Source: Micromonospora sp. NBC_01813
GTDB lineage: Bacteria; Actinomycetota; Actinomycetes; Mycobacteriales; Micromonosporaceae
Reading direction: 5' to 3'
DNA: 64,000 nt
Assembly: GCF_035917335.1 (NCBI RefSeq)
Contig: NZ_CP109067.1
Location: 2,169,001-2,233,000, forward strand
Shown: in pieces, positions 36,190-44,236 of the stretch
How positions within the stretch are numbered: the stretch's first letter is position 1
Layout: each line of letters starts with the position of its first letter
Program-made: the position numbers and the translations under genes
Notes under the pieces: generated by a model
The model's input: only the letters and a program-made list of their open reading frames with translations
Told to the model about the DNA's origin: nothing
Databases searched by the model: none

Positions 36190-36672
36190 TCACGTGGCGG
36201 GGGTGCGGCGGTAAGCGCCGGGGCCGGGGCGGGGCAGGGCGTCGCGCGGGCTGGCCACGTCGTGGCCGGCGGCGCAGCGCATGGTCACGCCGATCTCGGC
36301 GCCGCAGTCGCGGTGGGTCACGGTCAACGCCGAACCGTCCGGGTCGGCGCAGTACCGGTCGCCCCACTGCAGCATGGCGACCAGCACCGGCCACAGGTCG
36401 AGTCCTTTGTCGGTGAGGCGGTATTCGTAGCGTTGCCGCTCCCCCGGCTCCTGGTACGGGTGCCGGCGCAGCAGGCCCTGGTCGACCAGCATGGCGAGTC
36501 GGTTGGTCAGTACCTGGCGGGGGACCCTGGTGCGCTCACGCATCTGGTCGAAGCGCCGGACCCCGTTGAAGACCTCGCGGAGCACGACGACGGTCCACCG
36601 CTCGCCGAGGATCTCCATGGTGCGGGCGATGGTGCAGTTGTCGATGGACCAGTCGAGTGCGGTAGGTCTCAC
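36190..36672 (-). CDS. HxlR-family winged-helix transcriptional regulator
   Basis: A 160-residue regulator recognised by CTIARTMEILGERWTVVVLREVFNGVRRFDQMRER, then PRQVLTNRLAMLVDQGLLRR and YEYRLTDKGLDLWPVL, the HxlR helices, recognition helix and wing. The C-terminal tail has four cysteine/histidine positions around HRDCGAEIGVTMRCAAGH, a feature seen in one HxlR subgroup. The GTG at 36672 has GAGAGG upstream. That region is only three bases from the tnpB stop, so the start codon lies at the very edge of the IS607-type insertion. Its probable divergent partner, a thioesterase gene, is now 2 kb away. Confidence 0.88.
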   Translation of the reverse strand: MRPTALDWSIDNCTIARTMEILGERWTVVVLREVFNGVRRFDQMRERTRVPRQVLTNRLAMLVDQGLLRRHPYQEPGERQRYEYRLTDKGLDLWPVLVAMLQWGDRYCADPDGSALTVTHRDCGAEIGVTMRCAAGHDVASPRDALPRPGPGAYRRTPAT

Positions 36673-36674
36673 CG

Positions 36675-38051
36675 TTACCTCTCAGTGCGCTTTAGTGAGC
36701 ACACGGTCGGTAGTCCCGCCTTGCGGTGGGACGGTCCCGGTCTGACCGGCGTTGCCGTGCCGGGTTCACGCTTCGCAGCCACCTGCCCGCGTACGCGGGT
36801 CTTCTGGTCGGCTCCACGTGCTGCCACCGGGCCACTCCCGGCAGTCTCGTACTCAACGGCCAGGGCGGCCAGGTTACGCGCGGCGTTGTGGTCGCGGTCC
36901 ATGACCAGGCCACACGCCGCACAGCGGTACTCACGCTCGGACAGGGCCAGCTTGGTTTTCACCGCGCCACAGCCCGAGCAGGTCTTTGAGGATGGATACC
37001 AACGGTCGGCCACGAGCAGCCTGCCGCCGTTCCAGATGGTCTTGTACGCCAGTTGCCGCCGCAGTTCGGCGAATCCCGCGTCGGTGATGTGCCGGGCCAG
37101 CCTGCGGTTGGCCAGCATCCCGGAAACGTTGAGGTCTTCCGCCACGACCGTGCCGTGCTCGCGGGTCAGCCGGGTGGTGAGCTTGTGCAGCCCGTCGCGG
37201 CGCAGATGAGCGACCCGGGCGTGCGCCCGCCCGAGCCTGGCCTGAACGCGCTGCCACCGGTTCGACGGACGCTGCCCGGTACGCCGGTCCGGGCCGACCC
37301 GGCGAGACAGGGTCCGGCCGAGTGCCCGCAGCCGGGACCGCGCGCCGACAAGGTGTCGCGGGTTCGGCACCAGTTCACCGGTGGACAGCACCGCGAGATG
37401 CCGGATACCGACGTCCACCCCCACCACCGAGTCTGGTCGGGTCGGCCGCCGAACGGCGCGCTCCACCTCGACGGTGAACGCGACGTGCCAGCGTCCACCA
37501 GCACGGCGCACGGTAGCGGACACGATCCGGGCGGTGCCGGCCTCCACCCGGCGGGCGAGCTTACGCGTGGACTCGTGCACCTTCAACCGGCCCAGTCGGG
37601 GCAGCACCACATGTTTACGGTCCGGCTCGACGCGGATCGCGCCGGTGGTGAACCGCACGCCCGGCGTCGACCGACGGCGGGACTTGAACCGGGGAAACCC
37701 GACCCGACGGCCGGCCCGCTCACCCGAACGGGAACCGGCCCAGTTGGCCAACCCGCGGGCCAGGGCATCCAACCCGGTGTTGAACGCCTCCTTGGACACC
37801 TCCCGCCACCACGGCGCCACAGCAGGCTTGGCCGCGTTCCACGCCTTACGCAACGCCGGCAACGACCACGACACCGCCGGGGTGAGCAGTTCATCGGCGA
37901 CACCGTACGAACGCTCGGCGGCCCGCTGGTCCACCACCGCCCTCACCCGCGCGAGCGCCCAGTTGTACGCCACCCGCGCCGCCCCGGCGTGCGCCAGCAC
38001 CGCACGTTCCTGGCCCAGGGTGAGGTCCAGAGCGAACCGGTACGCCTGCAT
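36675..38051 (-). CDS. tnpB: TnpB-type RNA-guided nuclease of an IS607-like element
   Basis: A 458-residue OrfB/TnpB protein from the ATG at 38051. It opens MQAYRFALDLTLGQ. The RuvC-like catalytic residues are visible as D in VGVDVGIRHLAV, E in GTVVAEDLNVSGM and D in MDRDHNAARNLA. The zinc ribbon is CSGCGAVKTKLALSE followed by RYRCAAC-type CxxC (YRCAACG). TnpB proteins are programmable nucleases guided by an omega RNA from the element's 3' end and are ancestors of Cas12. Here the 3' end runs directly into the hxlR start, which limits the length of any guide. Not needed for transposition itself. Confidence 0.92.
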   Translation of the reverse strand: MQAYRFALDLTLGQERAVLAHAGAARVAYNWALARVRAVVDQRAAERSYGVADELLTPAVSWSLPALRKAWNAAKPAVAPWWREVSKEAFNTGLDALARGLANWAGSRSGERAGRRVGFPRFKSRRRSTPGVRFTTGAIRVEPDRKHVVLPRLGRLKVHESTRKLARRVEAGTARIVSATVRRAGGRWHVAFTVEVERAVRRPTRPDSVVGVDVGIRHLAVLSTGELVPNPRHLVGARSRLRALGRTLSRRVGPDRRTGQRPSNRWQRVQARLGRAHARVAHLRRDGLHKLTTRLTREHGTVVAEDLNVSGMLANRRLARHITDAGFAELRRQLAYKTIWNGGRLLVADRWYPSSKTCSGCGAVKTKLALSEREYRCAACGLVMDRDHNAARNLAALAVEYETAGSGPVAARGADQKTRVRGQVAAKREPGTATPVRPGPSHRKAGLPTVCSLKRTER

Positions 38052-38056
38052 CGTCT

Positions 38057-38653
38057 TCACACCGGCCCACCCGCTCCGGTGGCAGCTTCGACAGCCCGAC
38101 GGGCACGGCCCGCCGCCGCTCGACGCCCGTACAGCCGGGCACACAACAAGGTGAGAAACTCCGCCACGTCACCGACCAGGTCGCCGTCCACCCCGGCCGG
38201 GTCGACCACCAGGAGACGCCGGCCCTGTGCGGCAAGCGCCGCCTCGACATACTCGGCACCGAAGCGGACGAAACGGTCCCGGTGTTCCACCACGATCGTC
38301 GACACAGCCGGGTCACGGAGCAGAGCCAGGAACTTCCCGCGATGCCCGTCCAACCCGGACCCCACCTCGGTTACCACCCGAGACACCGACAGTCGCTGGC
38401 TGGTCGCCCACACGGTGACCCGGGCGACCTGCCGATCCAGGTCCGCTGTCTGGTCGGCGGACGACACCCGGGCGTACACCACGACCTGCCCGGCGGCAGT
38501 CGTGGCAGCAGCGAGCGGGTCACCGACCATGATCAGGCGGCCGAGCCGGTACGTGGGAACGGGCAGCGTCCCGGCCGCGTACTGCCGACGAGCGGTGATG
38601 TACGCGATGCCCTGCGACGCCGCCCACTCCTTCAAGTTCACATCGAACACCAT
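38057..38653 (-). CDS. tnpA: IS607-family serine recombinase (transposase A)
   Basis: A 198-residue recombinase. The N-terminal MerR-like DNA-binding domain reads FDVNLKEWAASQGIAYITARRQY then LPVPTYRLGRLIMV. The serine recombinase catalytic domain follows with VVVYARVSSADQ (nucleophilic Ser in ARVSS), DLDRQVARV, EVGSGLDGHRGKF and VVEHRDRFVRFG. The order HTH-before-catalytic domain is specific to IS607 enzymes. The preferred start is ATG at 38653. Its stop lies five bases before tnpB. Confidence 0.92.
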   Translation of the reverse strand: MVFDVNLKEWAASQGIAYITARRQYAAGTLPVPTYRLGRLIMVGDPLAAATTAAGQVVVYARVSSADQTADLDRQVARVTVWATSQRLSVSRVVTEVGSGLDGHRGKFLALLRDPAVSTIVVEHRDRFVRFGAEYVEAALAAQGRRLLVVDPAGVDGDLVGDVAEFLTLLCARLYGRRAAAGRARRAVEAATGAGGPV

Positions 38654-38712
38654 AGCAGCCCCAAGATCACCAAAGATGCCCAGCACGGCAGCAGATAACT
38701 ACCCCGACCAGG

Positions 38713-38735
38713 CTAGGTCTCGTTGACAGACCTAG
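38713..38735. repeat. Inverted repeat at the left boundary of the IS607-type element
   Basis: Perfect 8-bp arms ctaggtct (38713-38720) and agacctag (38728-38735) around cgttgac. It overlaps the proposed element edge and lies about 60 bases upstream of tnpA. It could be a TnpA binding site or part of the target. Confidence 0.45.
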
Positions 38736-38755
38736 CAACCGGCTGACAGCCTGCA

Positions 38756-39282
38756 ATGATGACGCAGACTCAGCAGCCGGCGCCGGACGCGACGCAGCGC
38801 AGCCGCACCTTCTCGTGGACCGACCCCGCGACGGTCCGGCTGGCCGCGTTGAACGGTCTCGACGGGCTGGACCAGCTGCGGGCGATGGCTTCCGGTGAGC
38901 TCCCCGCCCCGCCGGTCCTGGTGATGCTGGGCCTCGAAGGCCTGGAGCCCGAGCACGGCCGGGTCGTCGCCACGCTGACGCCGCAGGAGTTCCACTACAA
39001 CGCTCTGGGCACGGTGCACGGCGGCATCATCTCGACGCTGCTGGACACCGCGGCCGGCTGCGCGGTGCACTCCGTCCTGCCGGCCGGGACCAGCTACACC
39101 TCGATCGACCTGAACGTGAAGTTCCTGCGCCCGGTCACGCTCGCCTCGGGCATGCTGCGCTGCGAGGGCACCGTCGTGCAGCGCGGGCGGCGCACCGCGT
39201 ACGCCGAGGCGAAGCTGACCGATGCCGCCGGTCGGCTGGCCGCCCACGCCACCTCGTCCTGCCTGCTGTTCGAGCTGCCGCC

Positions 39283-39292
<10 letters not shown>
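38756..39292 (+). CDS. PaaI-family hotdog thioesterase
   Basis: A 178-residue hotdog-fold acyl-CoA thioesterase. The family motif is LGTVHGGIISTLLDTAAGCAV, with the conserved HGG and the catalytic acid Asp, and the second strand block reads YTSIDLNVKFLRPVTLASG. The first 50 residues (WTDPATVRLAALNGLDGLDQ) are an N-terminal extension common to one PaaI subgroup. Start at ATG 38756 or 38759, without a clear ribosome-binding site; the upstream region was probably rearranged by the IS607-type insertion. Convergent with urtE. Confidence 0.88.
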
Positions 39293-39344: not shown

Positions 39345-40046
39345 TCACACCGACAGCAGCTGGCGGACCGACTCATCGCGTAGGTCCTCCTTGTCGCCGG
39401 CCCGGACCACCTCGCCGGCGTCGAGGATGACGAACTGGTCGGCCAGCCGCAACGCCAGTTCGAGGTACTGCTCGACCAGCAGGATCGCCAGCCCGGCCTC
39501 GGAGTGCAGCCGTTCGATCGCCTCCTCGATCTCGACGATGATGGACGGCTGGATGCCTTCGGTCGGCTCGTCGAGCAGCAGCATCTTCGGCCGGGTGACC
39601 AGTGCGCGGGCGATCGCCAACTGCTGCTGCTGGCCGCCGGAGAGGAACCCTGCCCGGCGACGCAGCAGACCCCGCAGCGCCGGGAACAGGTCGAGGGCCT
39701 CGTCGACGCTGGACTTGTCGGTCCGGGCCGCCTCGACCGCGACCTGCAGGTTCTCCGCGACGGTCAGCTGTGGGAAGGTCTCGTGGCCCTGCGGCACGTA
39801 GCCGAGCCCGAGCCGCACCCGCTCGTGCGTGCGCAGTTTGGTGATGTCGCGCCCCTCGAAGGTGACCCGGCCGGCGCGCACCGGCAGCACCCCGGTGATC
39901 GCCTTCAGCAGCGTGGTCTTGCCGACCCCGTTGCGCCCCATCACACAGACCAGCGCGCCGGCCGGGGCCTGCAGGTCGACCCCGAAGAGCACCTGGGCCC
40001 GGCCGTACGCGACGTCGAGTGACTCGACGGTCAACATGGCAGTCAC
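39345..40046 (-). CDS. urtE: Urea ABC transporter ATPase UrtE
   Basis: A 233-residue ATPase of the LivF branch. Walker A GRNGVGKTTLLKAITG, signature LSGGQQQQLAIARAL, Walker B LLLDEPTEGIQPSI and H-loop LLVEQYLELAL. TEGIQPSIIVEIEEAIERL is typical of UrtE. GTG start at 40046 after AGGAGG, overlapping the urtD stop. Last gene of urtABCDE. Confidence 0.94.
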   Translation of the reverse strand: MTAMLTVESLDVAYGRAQVLFGVDLQAPAGALVCVMGRNGVGKTTLLKAITGVLPVRAGRVTFEGRDITKLRTHERVRLGLGYVPQGHETFPQLTVAENLQVAVEAARTDKSSVDEALDLFPALRGLLRRRAGFLSGGQQQQLAIARALVTRPKMLLLDEPTEGIQPSIIVEIEEAIERLHSEAGLAILLVEQYLELALRLADQFVILDAGEVVRAGDKEDLRDESVRQLLSV

Positions 40047-40828
40047 GACGACGCCTCCTGAGTGACTGGGGGTGCGGCGAGTTCGGTGGTCTCCTCGCGG
40101 GTCCGGCCGAGGTAGACCTGCTGCACCCGGGGGTCGGCCTGCACCTGCGCGACGGTGCCCTCGCAGAGCAGTTTGCCCTCGTGCAGCACGGTGACGGTGC
40201 TGGCGAAGCGGCGCAGGAACTCCATGTCGTGCTCGATCACCATCACCGTGTGGTCCTTGGCCACCTCGCGCAGCAGTTCACCGGTGCGTTCCCGCTCGCT
40301 GCGGCTCATTCCGGCCACCGGCTCGTCGAGCAGCAGCAGGCTGGGCTGCTGCACGATCAGCATGCCGATCTCCAGCCACTGCCGCTGGCCGTGGGAGAGC
40401 ACCCCGGCCGGCCGGTACGCCAGGTCGGCGAGACCGGTGGTGTCCAGTGCCCGCGACACCTCGTCGGAGACGCCCCGGCGACGGCGCAGCAGGCCGAGCA
40501 GCGGCCGGCGGAAGGACGCCGCCAGGTCGAGATTGTCCAAGACGGTGAGCTGCTCGAACACCACCGAGGTCTGGAAGGTACGGCCGATGCCGAGCCGGAC
40601 GATCCGGTGTTCCCGCTGGCCGACGAGTTCCTTGCCGTTGAACCGCACCGACCCGGACGCCGGCCTGGTCCGGCCGGTCACCACGTCGATCAAAGTGGTC
40701 TTGCCGGCACCGTTGGGCCCGATCAGGAACCGCAACTCGCCCGGCTCGACGGTCAGGCTCAGGTCGGTGACCGCCCGGAATCCGTCGAAGACGACGTTGA
40801 GGTCGCGTACCTCCAGTTTGCCGCTCAT
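40043..40828 (-). CDS. urtD: Urea ABC transporter ATPase UrtD
   Basis: A 261-residue ATPase of the LivG branch. Walker A IGPNGAGKTTLIDVVTG, Q-loop region GRTFQTSVVFEQLTV, signature LSHGQRQWLEIGM (the LSHG variant typical of UrtD), Walker B LLLDEPVAGMSRSE and H-loop MVIEHDMEFLRR. ATG start overlaps the urtC stop by four bases. It pairs with UrtE to energise urea uptake. Confidence 0.94.
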   Translation of the reverse strand: MSGKLEVRDLNVVFDGFRAVTDLSLTVEPGELRFLIGPNGAGKTTLIDVVTGRTRPASGSVRFNGKELVGQREHRIVRLGIGRTFQTSVVFEQLTVLDNLDLAASFRRPLLGLLRRRRGVSDEVSRALDTTGLADLAYRPAGVLSHGQRQWLEIGMLIVQQPSLLLLDEPVAGMSRSERERTGELLREVAKDHTVMVIEHDMEFLRRFASTVTVLHEGKLLCEGTVAQVQADPRVQQVYLGRTREETTELAAPPVTQEASS

Positions 40829-42018
40829 CGGTGCTCACCGCCGACCGAGGCGGTCGCCGCCGGCTGTGCCTGCGCGGGCACCGAGGTGCCGGCGGCCGGC
40901 GCGACTGGCACCGCCGCGCCCGGTGGGCCGCCGGACGACCGGCCCGGCCAGCGGTGCCGCAGCGCCGCCCAGCCGTCGCCGAGCAGCCCGGCGAGGCCGC
41001 GTGGTGCCCACATCATCACCGCGATGAACAGGCCGCCGAGCAGGTAGAGCCAGCCCGAGGGCCACTGCTCGCTGAGCACGGTGCTGCCGTAGTTGAACAG
41101 GATCGCGCCGCCGACCGCGCCGGCCAGCGAGAACCGTCCACCGATCGCGACGGCGACCAGCATCTCGATCGACGGGATCACGCCCAGATCGGCCGGGCCG
41201 AGGATGCCGACCACCGGCACGAACAGCGCGCCGGCGATCCCGGCCATGGCGGCCGACAGGGCGTACACCAGGGTCTTCACCACGGCCGGGTCGTAGCCGA
41301 GGAAGCGGACCCGGTCCTCGCCGTCGCGGATCGCGACCAGCAGTTTGCCGAACCGGGAGTGGGTGAGCTGCCAGGCGACCAGGAACACCAGGCCGAGGGC
41401 GCCGACGGCGACGTAGTAGACGATCCGTTTCTGCGCCGGGTCGTAGAGGTCCAGGCCGAAGAAGAACTGGACGTTGGTCAGCCCGTTGGTGCCGCCGGTG
41501 AGGCCCTGCTGACCGACCAGCAGGATCACGAACGCGGCGGCCAGAGCCTGGGAGAGTACGGCGAAGTAGGCGCCCCGCACCCGCTGGCGGAACACCAGCG
41601 TGCCGAGGATCAGGGCGACGGCGGTGGGCAGCACCACCACCATGGCCAGGGCGAAGAGCGGGTTGCGGAACGGTGCCCAGATTGCCGGCAGGGTCTCCAC
41701 GCCGCTCCACACCATGAAGTCGGGCAGGTTGCCCTCGCCTGCGTCGGCGAGTTTGAGGTACATGCCCATGGCGTAGCCGCCGAGGCCGAAGAAGACGCCC
41801 TGGCCGAGGGTGAGCATGCCGCCACGGCCCCAGGCCAGGTAGATGCCGACGGCGACGACGGCGTAGCAGAGGTACTTGGCCAGCAGGTCCAGCCGGAACG
41901 GGCTGAGCACCAGCGGTGCGACGACCAGTAGCAGCACCCCGACGGTGACGAAGACCGCCGGTCCAGGCCAGCGGGCGGCCGAGCGCGCGGCGGGCCGGGT
42001 CGTCCGGGCGGCGCTCAT
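40825..42018 (-). CDS. urtC: Urea ABC transporter permease UrtC
   Basis: A 397-residue LivM-like permease with nine to ten membrane segments. Family blocks are YLAWGRGGMLTLGQGVFFGLGGYAMGMYL, GLTGGTNGLTNVQ and the EAA-type region AIRDGEDRVRFLGYDPA. The C-terminal 45 residues are Pro/Ala-rich and cytoplasmic, beyond the usual end. ATG at 42018 overlaps the urtB stop; the longer upstream frame is antisense-like and not used. Confidence 0.93.
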   Translation of the reverse strand: MSAARTTRPAARSAARWPGPAVFVTVGVLLLVVAPLVLSPFRLDLLAKYLCYAVVAVGIYLAWGRGGMLTLGQGVFFGLGGYAMGMYLKLADAGEGNLPDFMVWSGVETLPAIWAPFRNPLFALAMVVVLPTAVALILGTLVFRQRVRGAYFAVLSQALAAAFVILLVGQQGLTGGTNGLTNVQFFFGLDLYDPAQKRIVYYVAVGALGLVFLVAWQLTHSRFGKLLVAIRDGEDRVRFLGYDPAVVKTLVYALSAAMAGIAGALFVPVVGILGPADLGVIPSIEMLVAVAIGGRFSLAGAVGGAILFNYGSTVLSEQWPSGWLYLLGGLFIAVMMWAPRGLAGLLGDGWAALRHRWPGRSSGGPPGAAVPVAPAAGTSVPAQAQPAATASVGGEHR

Positions 42019-42890
42019 GTCAGTGCCCGGGAACGGAGGACGAACATGCCCTGCGGGCGGAACTGGAGGAAGGCCACGATCACCGCGAACACCACCACCT
42101 TGGCGAGACTGGCATCGGTCCAGAATTCGACAAAACTGTTGATCACGCCGAGGGCGATCGCGGCGATCACCGCACCGCGCAACTGCCCGAGTCCCCCGGC
42201 GACGACGACGAGGAACGCGTCCACGATGTAGTAGGTGCCCAGCGACGGACCGACCGGGCCGATCAGGGTCAGCGCCACCCCGGCGACGCCGGCCAGGCCG
42301 GAGCCGATGAAGAAGGTGAGCTGGTCGACCCGTTGGGTGGCCACCCCGGTCACGGCCGCGAGCTGCCGGTTCTGCATCACCGCCCGCATCCGCCGGCCGT
42401 ACGACAGCTTGCTCAGGTAGAGCGAGATCGCCACCACACAGCCGATCGCGAGGGCCATGATGAAGATCCGGTTGTACGGCAGCCGTACGCCGGCCACGTC
42501 GACCCCGCCGGTGAGCCAACTGGGCGCGGTGACCTGCACGTTCGGCGCGCCGAAGATGTCCCGGGCGAGTTGCTGCAGGATCAGGCTGACGCCGAAGGTG
42601 AGCAGCAGGGTGTCCAGTGGACGGCCGTAGAACCGGCGGATCACCAGGCGTTCGAGGATCAGGCCCATGGTGCCGGCGATGAGGAACGCGACCGGCAGGG
42701 CGGCCGGGACGGCCTGCGCCCCGACCAACCCCTGCATCAGGTACGCGGTGTAGGCGCCCGCCAGGATGAACTCCCCATGGGCCATGTTGATGACGCCCAT
42801 TTGTCCAAAGGTGAAGGTCAGTCCGAGCGCGATCAGGAGCAGCACCGCTCCGATGCTCGCGCCGATGACCAGTTGGTTGAGTACCGCCAT
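42015..42890 (-). CDS. urtB: Urea ABC transporter permease UrtB
   Basis: A 291-residue LivH-like permease with eight or so membrane helices. It begins AVLNQLVIGASIGAVLLLIALGL and has FGQMGVINMAHGEFILAGAYTAY, the UrtB signature, then RRMRAVMQNRQLAAVTGVAT as the ATPase-contact loop. ATG at 42890 follows GGAGGGAGG at good spacing; a GTG at 42899 lies too close to that site. UrtB together with UrtC forms the membrane channel. Confidence 0.94.
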   Translation of the reverse strand: MAVLNQLVIGASIGAVLLLIALGLTFTFGQMGVINMAHGEFILAGAYTAYLMQGLVGAQAVPAALPVAFLIAGTMGLILERLVIRRFYGRPLDTLLLTFGVSLILQQLARDIFGAPNVQVTAPSWLTGGVDVAGVRLPYNRIFIMALAIGCVVAISLYLSKLSYGRRMRAVMQNRQLAAVTGVATQRVDQLTFFIGSGLAGVAGVALTLIGPVGPSLGTYYIVDAFLVVVAGGLGQLRGAVIAAIALGVINSFVEFWTDASLAKVVVFAVIVAFLQFRPQGMFVLRSRALT

Positions 42891-42923
42891 GGCGGGCACC
42901 TCCCTCCGTGAGCTACCGGCGCG

Positions 42924-44147
42924 CTACGACAGGCCTTCGGCCCAGTCGTAACCGGACAGGTACGGGTCCGGCTTGATGGGTTCGCCGGAGTTCCACACCT
43001 CCTGGATCTGGCCGTCGGGCTGCACCACGCCGATCCTGGCCGTCTTGAAGACGTGCTGGTTGTCGCCGTCGATGGTGACGGTGCCTTCGGGCGCGTCGAT
43101 GCTGATCCCGCCGGCTGCCGCCTTGACTGCTTCGACCTCGGTGGTGCCGGCGGCTTCGACGGCCGCCGCCCAGAGGTAGACGGCGTTGTAGCCGGCCTCC
43201 ATCGGGTCGGAGGTGACCTTGGATTCGCCGTACTTGGCCTTGAACGCCTCGACGAAGGCGGTGTTCCGGTCGCCTTCGGTGGTCTGGTAGTAGTTCCAGG
43301 CGACCAGGTGGCCGGCGACGTTCTCCGGTCCGATGCCGACGACTTCTTCCTCGGCGACGCTGACCGACACGGTCGGCATCGCGTCGGCGGTGATGCCGGC
43401 GCTGGTCAGCTGCTTGAAGAAGGCGACGTTGCTGTCACCGTTGAGGGTGTTGAAGACCGCGTCGGGGCTGGCCTGCTGGAGCTTGTTGACCACTGTGCTG
43501 TATTCGGTGTGGCCGAGCGGGGTGTACTCCTCGCCGACCACCTGCATGCCGTTCGCCTCGGCGTACGCCTTGATGATCTTGTTCGCGGTCCGCGGGAAGA
43601 CGTAGTCGCTACCGACCAGGAAGATCGTCTGGTGGCCCTGCTCCTTGAGGTAGTCCAGGCCGGGGACGATCTGCTGGTTGGTGGTGGCTCCGGTGTAGAA
43701 GATGTACGGCGAGCTCTCCAGCCCTTCGTACTGCACCGGGTACCACAGCAGGGCCTTGTTGCGCTCGAAGACCGGCAGCATCGCCTTGCGACTGGCCGAT
43801 GTCCAGCCACCGAAGACGGTGGCGACCTTGTCCTGGGATATGAGCTTCTGCGCCTTCTCGGCGAACGTGGGCCAGTCCGACGCACCGTCCTCGACGACGG
43901 GTTCGATCTGCTTGCCCAGCACGCCACCGGCCTCGTTGATCTCTTCGATCGCGAGCAACTCTGCGTCGCGTACGGTGACCTCGCTGATGGCCATGGTGCC
44001 GCTCAGCGAGTGCAGGATGCCGACCTTGATGGTGTCGGAGTCGGTGCCGCCGCCCGAGGACGTGGGGTCCTCGGCGCAGGCGGCGGTGGCGACCAGTGTC
44101 GACAATATACAGAGTGCGGCTAGGCCGCCCCGGAGGCGTCGTGGCAT
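42924..44147 (-). CDS. urtA: Urea ABC transporter substrate-binding lipoprotein UrtA
   Basis: A 407-residue binding protein with a lipoprotein signal ([10 protein letters not shown], Cys23 lipidated). The mature domain has [44 protein letters not shown] then [13 protein letters not shown], and [11 protein letters not shown], all strongly diagnostic of UrtA. ATG at 44147 after GAAGGGAAG. It is first in urtABCDE, as expected for a highly expressed binding protein, and has a GlnR-like motif about 75 bases upstream. Confidence 0.95.
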
Positions 44148-44220
44148 CCAACTTCCCTTCAGCCGAAGTGTGGTGCCACGAAACGTAGGGACGTGGAGTT
44201 TCACGTATCTCGACACATCG

Positions 44221-44236
44221 ATTTCCAACGCGTTAA
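44221..44236 (-). promoter_or_regulatory. Putative GlnR-like box upstream of urtA
   Basis: On the minus strand the sequence reads TTAAC-gcgttg-GAAAT, matching the gTnAC-n6-GaAAC GlnR pattern at 8 of 10 positions. It resembles the box before ureA (GTAAC-gcgatt-GAAAT), including most of the spacer. It lies 74-89 bases before the urtA start, at the base of the upstream terminator hairpin. Confidence 0.4.

What the first reader, a model, noticed from the sequence alone, without database searches (positions are those of the whole stretch)
36655..38760. IS607-type element separates an HxlR regulator from a probable divergent target
The element lies between the start of hxlR (minus strand) and a thioesterase gene (plus strand). 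Without it, the two would be closely divergent, the usual layout for an HxlR regulator and its target. The octamer taggtctc flanks the element (36663-36670, 38714-38721) and contains GG, the preferred IS607 target. If these are the true ends, the insertion split a shared promoter and supplied the present hxlR GTG start.
Basis: partly seen in the sequence, partly recalled or inferred. Interest (0 to 1): 0.5.

Follow-up and report, generated by a model that had tools for sequence, protein, structure and literature searches.

The report
Jumping element parked before regulator's start
A small mobile DNA element of a known family has landed between the probable on-switch of a regulator gene and the gene's first codon, and related copies land just in front of gene starts more often than expected.

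Summary
The element is real: a complete IS607-family insertion (TnpA, TnpB, 3' guide-type RNA) at 36674-38703. All 6 congeneric genomes searched lack it and keep hxlR and the thioesterase gene divergent and adjacent; 19 of 23 fetched loci from other genera show the same pair. Both taggtctc octamers lie outside the element and are in the empty sites (left 6 of 6, right 5 of 6). The right one is half of a conserved palindrome, probably the HxlR operator, found only at this locus in 6 of 7 genus genomes. The hxlR GTG was already present. The shared promoter was not cut: both inferred promoters stayed beside the thioesterase and hxlR lost its own. hxlR now follows tnpA-tnpB, two bases after the tnpB stop, with a Shine-Dalgarno-like GAGAGG from the element's end. 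The RNA's guide would be the first codons of hxlR. In 12 of 34 copies with both ends found, a co-directional gene start lies within 12 nt of the same element end, against 42 of 2823 control GGG sites. An ordinary IS607 element with an insertion habit for which the searches made found no report. Expression and activity were not tested.

The parts
36674..38703 (-). IS607-family element, 2030 bp; the crossover lies in a CC (GG on the tnp strand) core, so which CC copy belongs to the element is arbitrary
   Evidence: empty sites in 6 of 6 congeners; ten complete and one partial related copy in the own genome
36672..36673 (.). core dinucleotide at the tnpB-side end (right end, RE); 36672 also gives the first G of the hxlR GTG
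38702..38704 (-). core dinucleotide plus third G: GGG on the tnp strand at the tnpA-side end (left end, LE); agrees with the GGG TAM of ISXfa1 TnpB
   Evidence: PMC10711439 passages
38057..38653 (-). tnpA, IS607 serine transposase, 198 aa
   Evidence: NF033518, 177.9 bits, cut-off 110
36675..38051 (-). tnpB, IS607-type TnpB, 458 aa; its TAA stop (36675-36677) is two bases from the hxlR GTG
   Evidence: NF038280, 573.8 bits, cut-off 350; translation; alignment to two solved relatives
36709..36774 (-). Transposase-2 RNA (RF03015), taken here as part of the guide RNA (reRNA) scaffold
   Evidence: 68.9 bits, gathering 42.7; also in 8 of 8 further copies scanned
36652..36671 (-). expected guide stretch of the reRNA: first codons of hxlR (inferred)
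   Evidence: position next to the element end
36678..36683 (-). GAGAGG, Shine-Dalgarno-like, carried by the element end, 5 nt before the hxlR GTG
   Evidence: duplex energy -7.1 kcal/mol against -3.6 in the reconstructed empty site
36190..36672 (-). hxlR, HxlR-type regulator, 160 aa
   Evidence: PF01638; solved HxlR-type relatives
38712..38736 (.). palindrome GCTAGGTCT-N7-AGACCTAGC, probable HxlR operator
   Evidence: related sequence in 25 empty loci; pattern found only at this locus in 6 of 7 genus genomes
38710..38738 (-). inferred hxlR promoter: TTGCTA (38738-38733), 17 nt, TAGCCT (38715-38710); now reads into tnpA
   Evidence: read by eye from the conserved block; not reported by the consensus scan
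38723..38728 (+). TTGACA, inferred -35 of the thioesterase gene, inside the palindrome
   Evidence: invariant in the alignment; not reported by the consensus scan
38756..39292 (+). hotdog-fold thioesterase gene; the likely start is the second ATG at 38759, which matches relatives
   Evidence: PF03061, TIGR00369, starts

Best explanation
An IS607-family element inserted at a GGG site between the promoter of hxlR and its GTG codon. The ancestral hxlR message was probably leaderless, with a TAGCCT -10 box 7 nt before the start codon. The conserved bidirectional promoter/operator stayed intact beside the thioesterase gene, so thioesterase control in cis is probably unchanged. The former hxlR promoter now faces tnpA, and hxlR has become the last cistron of tnpA-tnpB-reRNA-hxlR. 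It would be translated from a Shine-Dalgarno-like sequence in the element's end and possibly coupled to tnpB (TAA CG GTG). The reRNA guide would be the start of hxlR. It could direct TnpB to the empty allele (GGG next to the target), while the filled allele shows CGG there and should be spared. Shown: ends, empty sites, gene order, conserved palindrome, element end sequence, excess of family copies before gene starts. Inferred: promoters, operator function, transcription, translation, guide activity.
For: Six of 6 congeners have the empty site. With 36674-38703 left out, the site has the length of all 6 and the letters of L025 and L027 across the junction (read off the sequences printed). At three further copies (L010, L011, L019) six alignments to relatives run ungapped through the junction. 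TnpA and TnpB pass their IS607 cut-offs, and the D, E and D positions of TnpB are intact in the two alignments shown (residue roles recalled). RF03015 lies at the 3' end. The intergenic block is conserved across 25 loci, with the start codon GTG or ATG at the same place in 24, and the palindrome pattern is local. The leader's pairing to the anti-SD rises from -3.6 to -7.1 kcal/mol; 1000 random window 20-mers have median -3.2 and a 5% point of -7.1. Co-directional gene starts lie within 12 nt of the tnpB-side end in 12 of 34 copies against 42 of 2823 control GGG sites, and at the other end in 1 of 34.
Against: The consensus scan found no promoter in the empty or filled intergenic region. In the 11 own siblings the frame of the terminal TAA is open for only 32 codons; 13 of 81 copies are open for at least 150, so coupling to tnpB is not a family rule. 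At L017 the empty site is one base shorter in 6 of 6 alignments; L014 (2 alignments, large gap beside the junction) and L015 (4) do not decide. The element's end pairs less well with the anti-SD than the leader it replaced in 10 of 12 sites; hxlR and L235 are the exceptions. hxlR shows no clear decay, which agrees with continued expression but also with a recent insertion. No expression data exist here.
Confidence: 0.7

Rival explanations
1. hxlR has been silenced: cut off from its promoter it is no longer made, the thioesterase gene is deregulated, and hxlR is on its way to decay.
For: The inferred promoter is 2 kb away behind tnpA and tnpB. reRNA maturation could cut the message at the hxlR start (TnpB processing its own mRNA: title and start of the abstract of PMC10278001 seen in the listing). 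Amino-acid differences of hxlR to G003 are somewhat higher for G000 (11) than for G006 (8) or G002 (5).
Against: The hxlR frame is intact with an SD-like sequence at suitable spacing. Differences to G006 by codon position are 7/4/19, the pattern of a constrained gene; distances to G001, G004 and G005 are hardly raised (15 against 13-14), and the thioesterase shows a similar small excess.
Confidence: 0.3
2. The octamers are the ends or target duplication of the element, as first read.
For: Two identical octamers flank the element.
Against: They are in the empty sites of the congeners (left 6 of 6, right 5 of 6), and own-genome copies show the conserved ends inside them without any octamer.
Confidence: 0.01
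3. The element's frequent place before gene starts reflects only purging of harmful insertions, not target choice.
For: By the score used, 30 of 34 copies lie outside coding frames; the excess reaches beyond 12 nt, with 8, 5, 2 and 4 of 34 in the classes 13-27, 28-42, 43-57 and 58-87 nt (classes can overlap).
Against: Against control GGG sites not inside a coding frame the excess remains, 12 of 30 against 37 of 1034, and it is one-sided, 12 of 34 at the tnpB end and 1 of 34 at the other. The coding score is crude: L010 and L014, which by eye touch reading frames, count as outside.
Confidence: 0.32

Closest known systems
IS607 family (IS607 of Helicobacter pylori, ISXfa1 of Xylella)
   Same: Serine transposase plus TnpB, GG core, (G)GG target, no target duplication, guide-type RNA at the 3' end; GGG TAM for ISXfa1 (passages of PMC6188088, and PMC10711439; section 25 of the latter)
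   Different: many copies sit directly before co-directional gene starts and carry a Shine-Dalgarno-like end; whether the ISXfa1 RNA belongs to RF03015 was not checked
IS607 TnpBs with RAGATH-18 RNA (ISFba1)
   Same: IS607 TnpB with a downstream guide RNA
   Different: RNA family and TAM differ (AGGAG or GAGGG there; passages of PMC11061315)
HxlR/divergent-target gene pairs such as Bacillus hxlR and YodB systems
   Same: HxlR-type regulator divergent from a likely target, with a palindrome between them
   Different: the partner is a hotdog thioesterase; the ligand is unknown; the resemblance of layout is recalled from general knowledge

Membership tests
IS607 family element | IS607-type serine transposase TnpA | tested here: met
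   NF033518 above cut-off
IS607 family element | IS607-type TnpB | tested here: met
   NF038280 above cut-off
IS607 family element | insertion at GG with no target duplication beyond the core | tested here: met
   empty sites and 11 complete own copies including this one
IS607 family element | no terminal inverted repeats | not tested
   no dedicated search was made
IS607 family element | guide RNA at the 3' end | tested here: inconclusive
   RF03015 match at the 3' end; its role as TnpB guide is inferred
IS607 family element | mobility and TnpB cleavage | not testable with these tools
   needs experiment
HxlR regulator with divergent target | HxlR-type DNA-binding protein | tested here: met
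   PF01638
HxlR regulator with divergent target | conserved divergent neighbour | tested here: met
   6 of 6 congeners, 19 of 23 loci of other genera
HxlR regulator with divergent target | binding of the regulator to the shared intergenic region | not testable with these tools
   only a conserved palindrome is seen

The most novel reading that the evidence does not exclude
This IS607 subfamily targets Shine-Dalgarno/start regions through its GGG requirement, in one orientation. It replaces the split ribosome-binding site with one in its own end, so the struck gene stays translatable and becomes part of the element's operon, while the TnpB guide is often written from the start of that gene. That gives a ready source of RNA guides against gene starts. 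In the sister species G002 and G006 the empty site differs by three adjacent bases that abolish the GGG, which may be a scar of a lost element and would protect the site from TnpB.
Probability: 0.27. Interest if true: 0.65.

Novelty: new member of a known kind. Interest (0 to 1): 0.42.

Why it matters
It shows how an insertion can take a regulator from its probable autoregulated promoter without breaking the gene, and it gives clean empty/filled pairs for testing that. If the excess before gene starts holds, it would help explain how TnpB elements live with host genes and how guide RNAs aimed at gene starts arise, a possible road to the RNA-guided regulators derived from TnpB (these are recalled; one appears in the listing).

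Tried and rejected
Octamers as ends: rejected by empty sites. GTG supplied by the element: rejected. Scar in G002/G006: the element's end reads CCGTTACC and the derived empty allele CCGTCACC. No place listed by the 300-genome pattern search joins CCGTCACC to the T[CT]TCAGTG of real ends (its listing is capped per genome), so a scar needs one more substitution; left open. Decay of hxlR after the insertion: not clear. Other genomic targets of the guide: only hxlR itself matches exactly; three places with 3 mismatches were found, and the backwards control also gave 1. Promoter scan: nothing. The first duplex-energy calculation doubled the GG core in the new leaders and was replaced. The codon-position comparison of tnpA used a wrong frame and is not used. 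Two rows of joined window sequence, were cut at wrong bases (three too many kept at the left, two dropped at the right); the comparison given rests on the unjoined letters. The 80 named loci were not used for any count. Limits of the gene-start test: the tnpA-side end was recognised with a pattern written for the purpose (it requires CCC), 46 of 80 copies were dropped because that end was not recognised or too little sequence was held, the control comes from this window only, and some copies share a genome. The looser test without that end gave 26 of 81 against 365 of 2835, and 19 of 69 without the own genome, p about 0.001. Literature: listings (12 of 117 shown; 1 of 1; 10 of 19; 2 of 2; 12 of 24) show no title or abstract start on IS607 insertion at Shine-Dalgarno sites, and PMC6188088 has no 'start codon' in its main text; these cover the held open library only. 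On checking, the odds of the novel case went from 0.30 to 0.27 and those of the purging rival from 0.30 to 0.32, because the element's end is weaker than the replaced leader in 10 of 12 sites and the excess extends beyond 12 nt.

Full report
What is there. On the minus strand, between hxlR and a divergent thioesterase gene, lies a complete IS607-family element: tnpA (38653-38057; NF033518, 177.9 bits, cut-off 110), tnpB (38051-36675; NF038280, 573.8 bits, cut-off 350), and a Transposase-2 RNA match, RF03015, at 36774-36709. TnpB aligns over most of its length with solved relatives; in the two alignments shown the DVG, EDL and DRDxNAA positions are present (their role as the RuvC triad is recalled). 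The neighbours are an HxlR-type regulator (PF01638) and a 4HBT hotdog protein.

Ends. The own genome (one contig, 7.63 Mb) holds 14 further matches at 67-81% identity, of which ten reach both element ends and one (L020) begins at the same tnpB-side end. The eleven complete copies, this one included, begin with CCGTTACC and end with CT[AG]CCC (printed ends; one search located the end with that same pattern). All 6 congeneric genomes searched have the thioesterase gene directly beside hxlR without the element. Three read CACCCCGACC at the site, L028 reads CACCCCGCCC, and L023 and L024 read CACCGTCACC. Leaving 36674-38703 out of the window gives the same length as all six and, for L025 and L027, the same letters across the junction (read off). 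Other copies, 18 alignments to relatives: at L010 (1), L011 (3) and L019 (2) they run ungapped through the junction; at L017 all six are one base shorter; at L014 (2) a large gap lies beside the junction and at L015 (4) the sequences are too diverged to tell. So the element is 36674-38703 with a CC/GG core, with L017 unexplained. The third C (GGG on the tnp strand) agrees with the (G)GG target of IS607 and the GGG motif of ISXfa1 TnpB (passages of PMC6188088; passages of PMC10711439, and its section 25). The nearest relative copy, in G003 (90%), has a different-looking tnpA-side end.

What the octamer is. Both copies of taggtctc lie outside the element and occur in the empty sites, the left in 6 of 6 and the right in 5 of 6. 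The right copy is half of GCTAGGTCT-N7-AGACCTAGC (38712-38736). The intergenic region is conserved in 25 empty loci, six from the genus and 19 from other genera, with TTGACAGAC invariant and the flanking GCTA..TCT and AGAC..AGC nearly so. A pattern of the palindrome occurs once in each of 6 of 7 genus genomes, always at this locus; G002 does not match, having a variant there. This is what an HxlR operator over the thioesterase -35 box would look like; binding is not shown. In other genera 19 of the 23 loci fetched have hxlR adjacent and divergent; these 23 are the best-scoring of 200 non-genus genomes with a match among the 300 searched.

What changed for hxlR. The start codon, GTG in the genus and GTG or ATG elsewhere, is at the same place in 24 of the 25 empty loci; L054 could not be judged. 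In the genus a TAGCCT box ends 7 nt before the GTG, with TTGCTA 17 nt upstream, which suggests a leaderless message; this is my reading, and the consensus scan lists no promoter in either state. The insertion lies between that box and the GTG. hxlR is now preceded by ACTGAGAGGTAACG: the element end carries GAGAGG five nt from the GTG, and the tnpB stop TAA is two nt from it. Pairing of the 20-nt leader to the anti-Shine-Dalgarno goes from -3.6 to -7.1 kcal/mol; 1000 random 20-mers of the window have median -3.2 and a 5% point of -7.1. hxlR codon differences to G006 are 7/4/19 by position. Amino-acid distance to G003 is 11 for G000 against 8 and 5 for G006 and G002; to G001, G004 and G005 it is 15 against 13-14. 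Coupling to tnpB is particular to this copy among its own siblings, whose frame at the terminal TAA is open for only 32 codons (11 of 11).

Guide. The expected guide of the reRNA is TGAGACCTACC..., the first codons of hxlR. The empty allele of L025-L028 shows GGG beside it and the filled allele CGG, so a TnpB with a GGG TAM would cut the former and spare the latter. In G002 and G006 three adjacent bases differ and the motif is CGG. This may be chance, or a scar of a lost element followed by one substitution; no listed element end has the scar's letters. No other exact match to the guide was found in the genome.

A wider habit. Reading the flanks of 12 own copies suggested that several sit directly before co-directional gene starts: hxlR, a glutamine synthetase gene, a GNAT gene (by eye just inside its start), an HTH regulator and others. 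Nine proteins read from such starts, three own and six foreign, all matched a Pfam family; L208, L214, L245 and L020 among them are not in the 34 copies counted below, and L018 is but was not scored as a start. I fetched 70 further copies (69 could be read) and scored starts with a codon model trained on 27 frames of the window. With both ends recognised in 34 of 80 copies, 12 have a gene start between -2 and +12 nt of the tnpB-side end; the control is 42 of 2824 GGG sites and 42 of 2823 (Fisher p about 2e-13). It is 4 of 11 in the own genome and 8 of 23 elsewhere. Other score limits keep the excess: 13, 12, 10 and 6 of 34 against 62, 42, 33 and 20 of 2823. Among sites scored as not inside coding frames it is 12 of 30 against 37 of 1034. 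At the opposite end 1 of 34 copies has an outward start. The excess is weaker but present further away: 8 of 34 at 13-27 nt and 5 of 34 at 28-42 nt, each against about 1.3-1.5% of control sites (classes can overlap). In 9 of the 12 sites the pre-insertion leader pairs strongly with the anti-SD, -6.4 to -10.8 kcal/mol, so a GGG target inside Shine-Dalgarno sequences is the simplest cause there; the hxlR site itself is not of that kind (-3.6). The element end leaves pairing of -3.9 to -9.5 kcal/mol, weaker than before in 10 of 12 sites and stronger in 2, hxlR and L235. That the end (GAGAGG, GAAAGG or GATAGG) is selected as a ribosome-binding site is not shown; it may be conserved for transposase binding or as the reRNA 3' end.

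Verdict. An ordinary IS607 element, correctly noticed, wrongly bounded. It separated hxlR from an apparently intact divergent promoter rather than cutting that promoter, and did not make the GTG. The one-sided excess before gene starts is the part worth following.

Noticed in passing
L023 and L024, junction beside hxlR: The empty sites of G006 and G002 differ from other congeners by three adjacent bases exactly at the insertion point, which removes the GGG; possibly a scar of a lost element.
   Followed up: partly
L020 (G000:C1:292746-296000): A partial copy of the element family lies 5 nt before the GTG of a glutamine synthetase gene.
   Followed up: partly
L011 (G000:C1:2847230-2850457): A copy interrupts an open reading frame (resembling an F420-dependent NADP reductase by eye, name recalled); three congeners have the stretch uninterrupted.
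   Followed up: partly
L245 (G003:C1:1642992-1646107): In a congener, a copy of the element end sits 9 nt before the start of smpB.
   Followed up: no
G245 of the family: One genome has 15 matches to the tnpB-side end pattern, the most of the 300 searched.
   Followed up: no
window 39345-44228: A run of minus-strand transporter-like genes follows the thioesterase (39345-40046 is an ABC ATPase); by eye it resembles a urea/amino-acid uptake operon.
   Followed up: no
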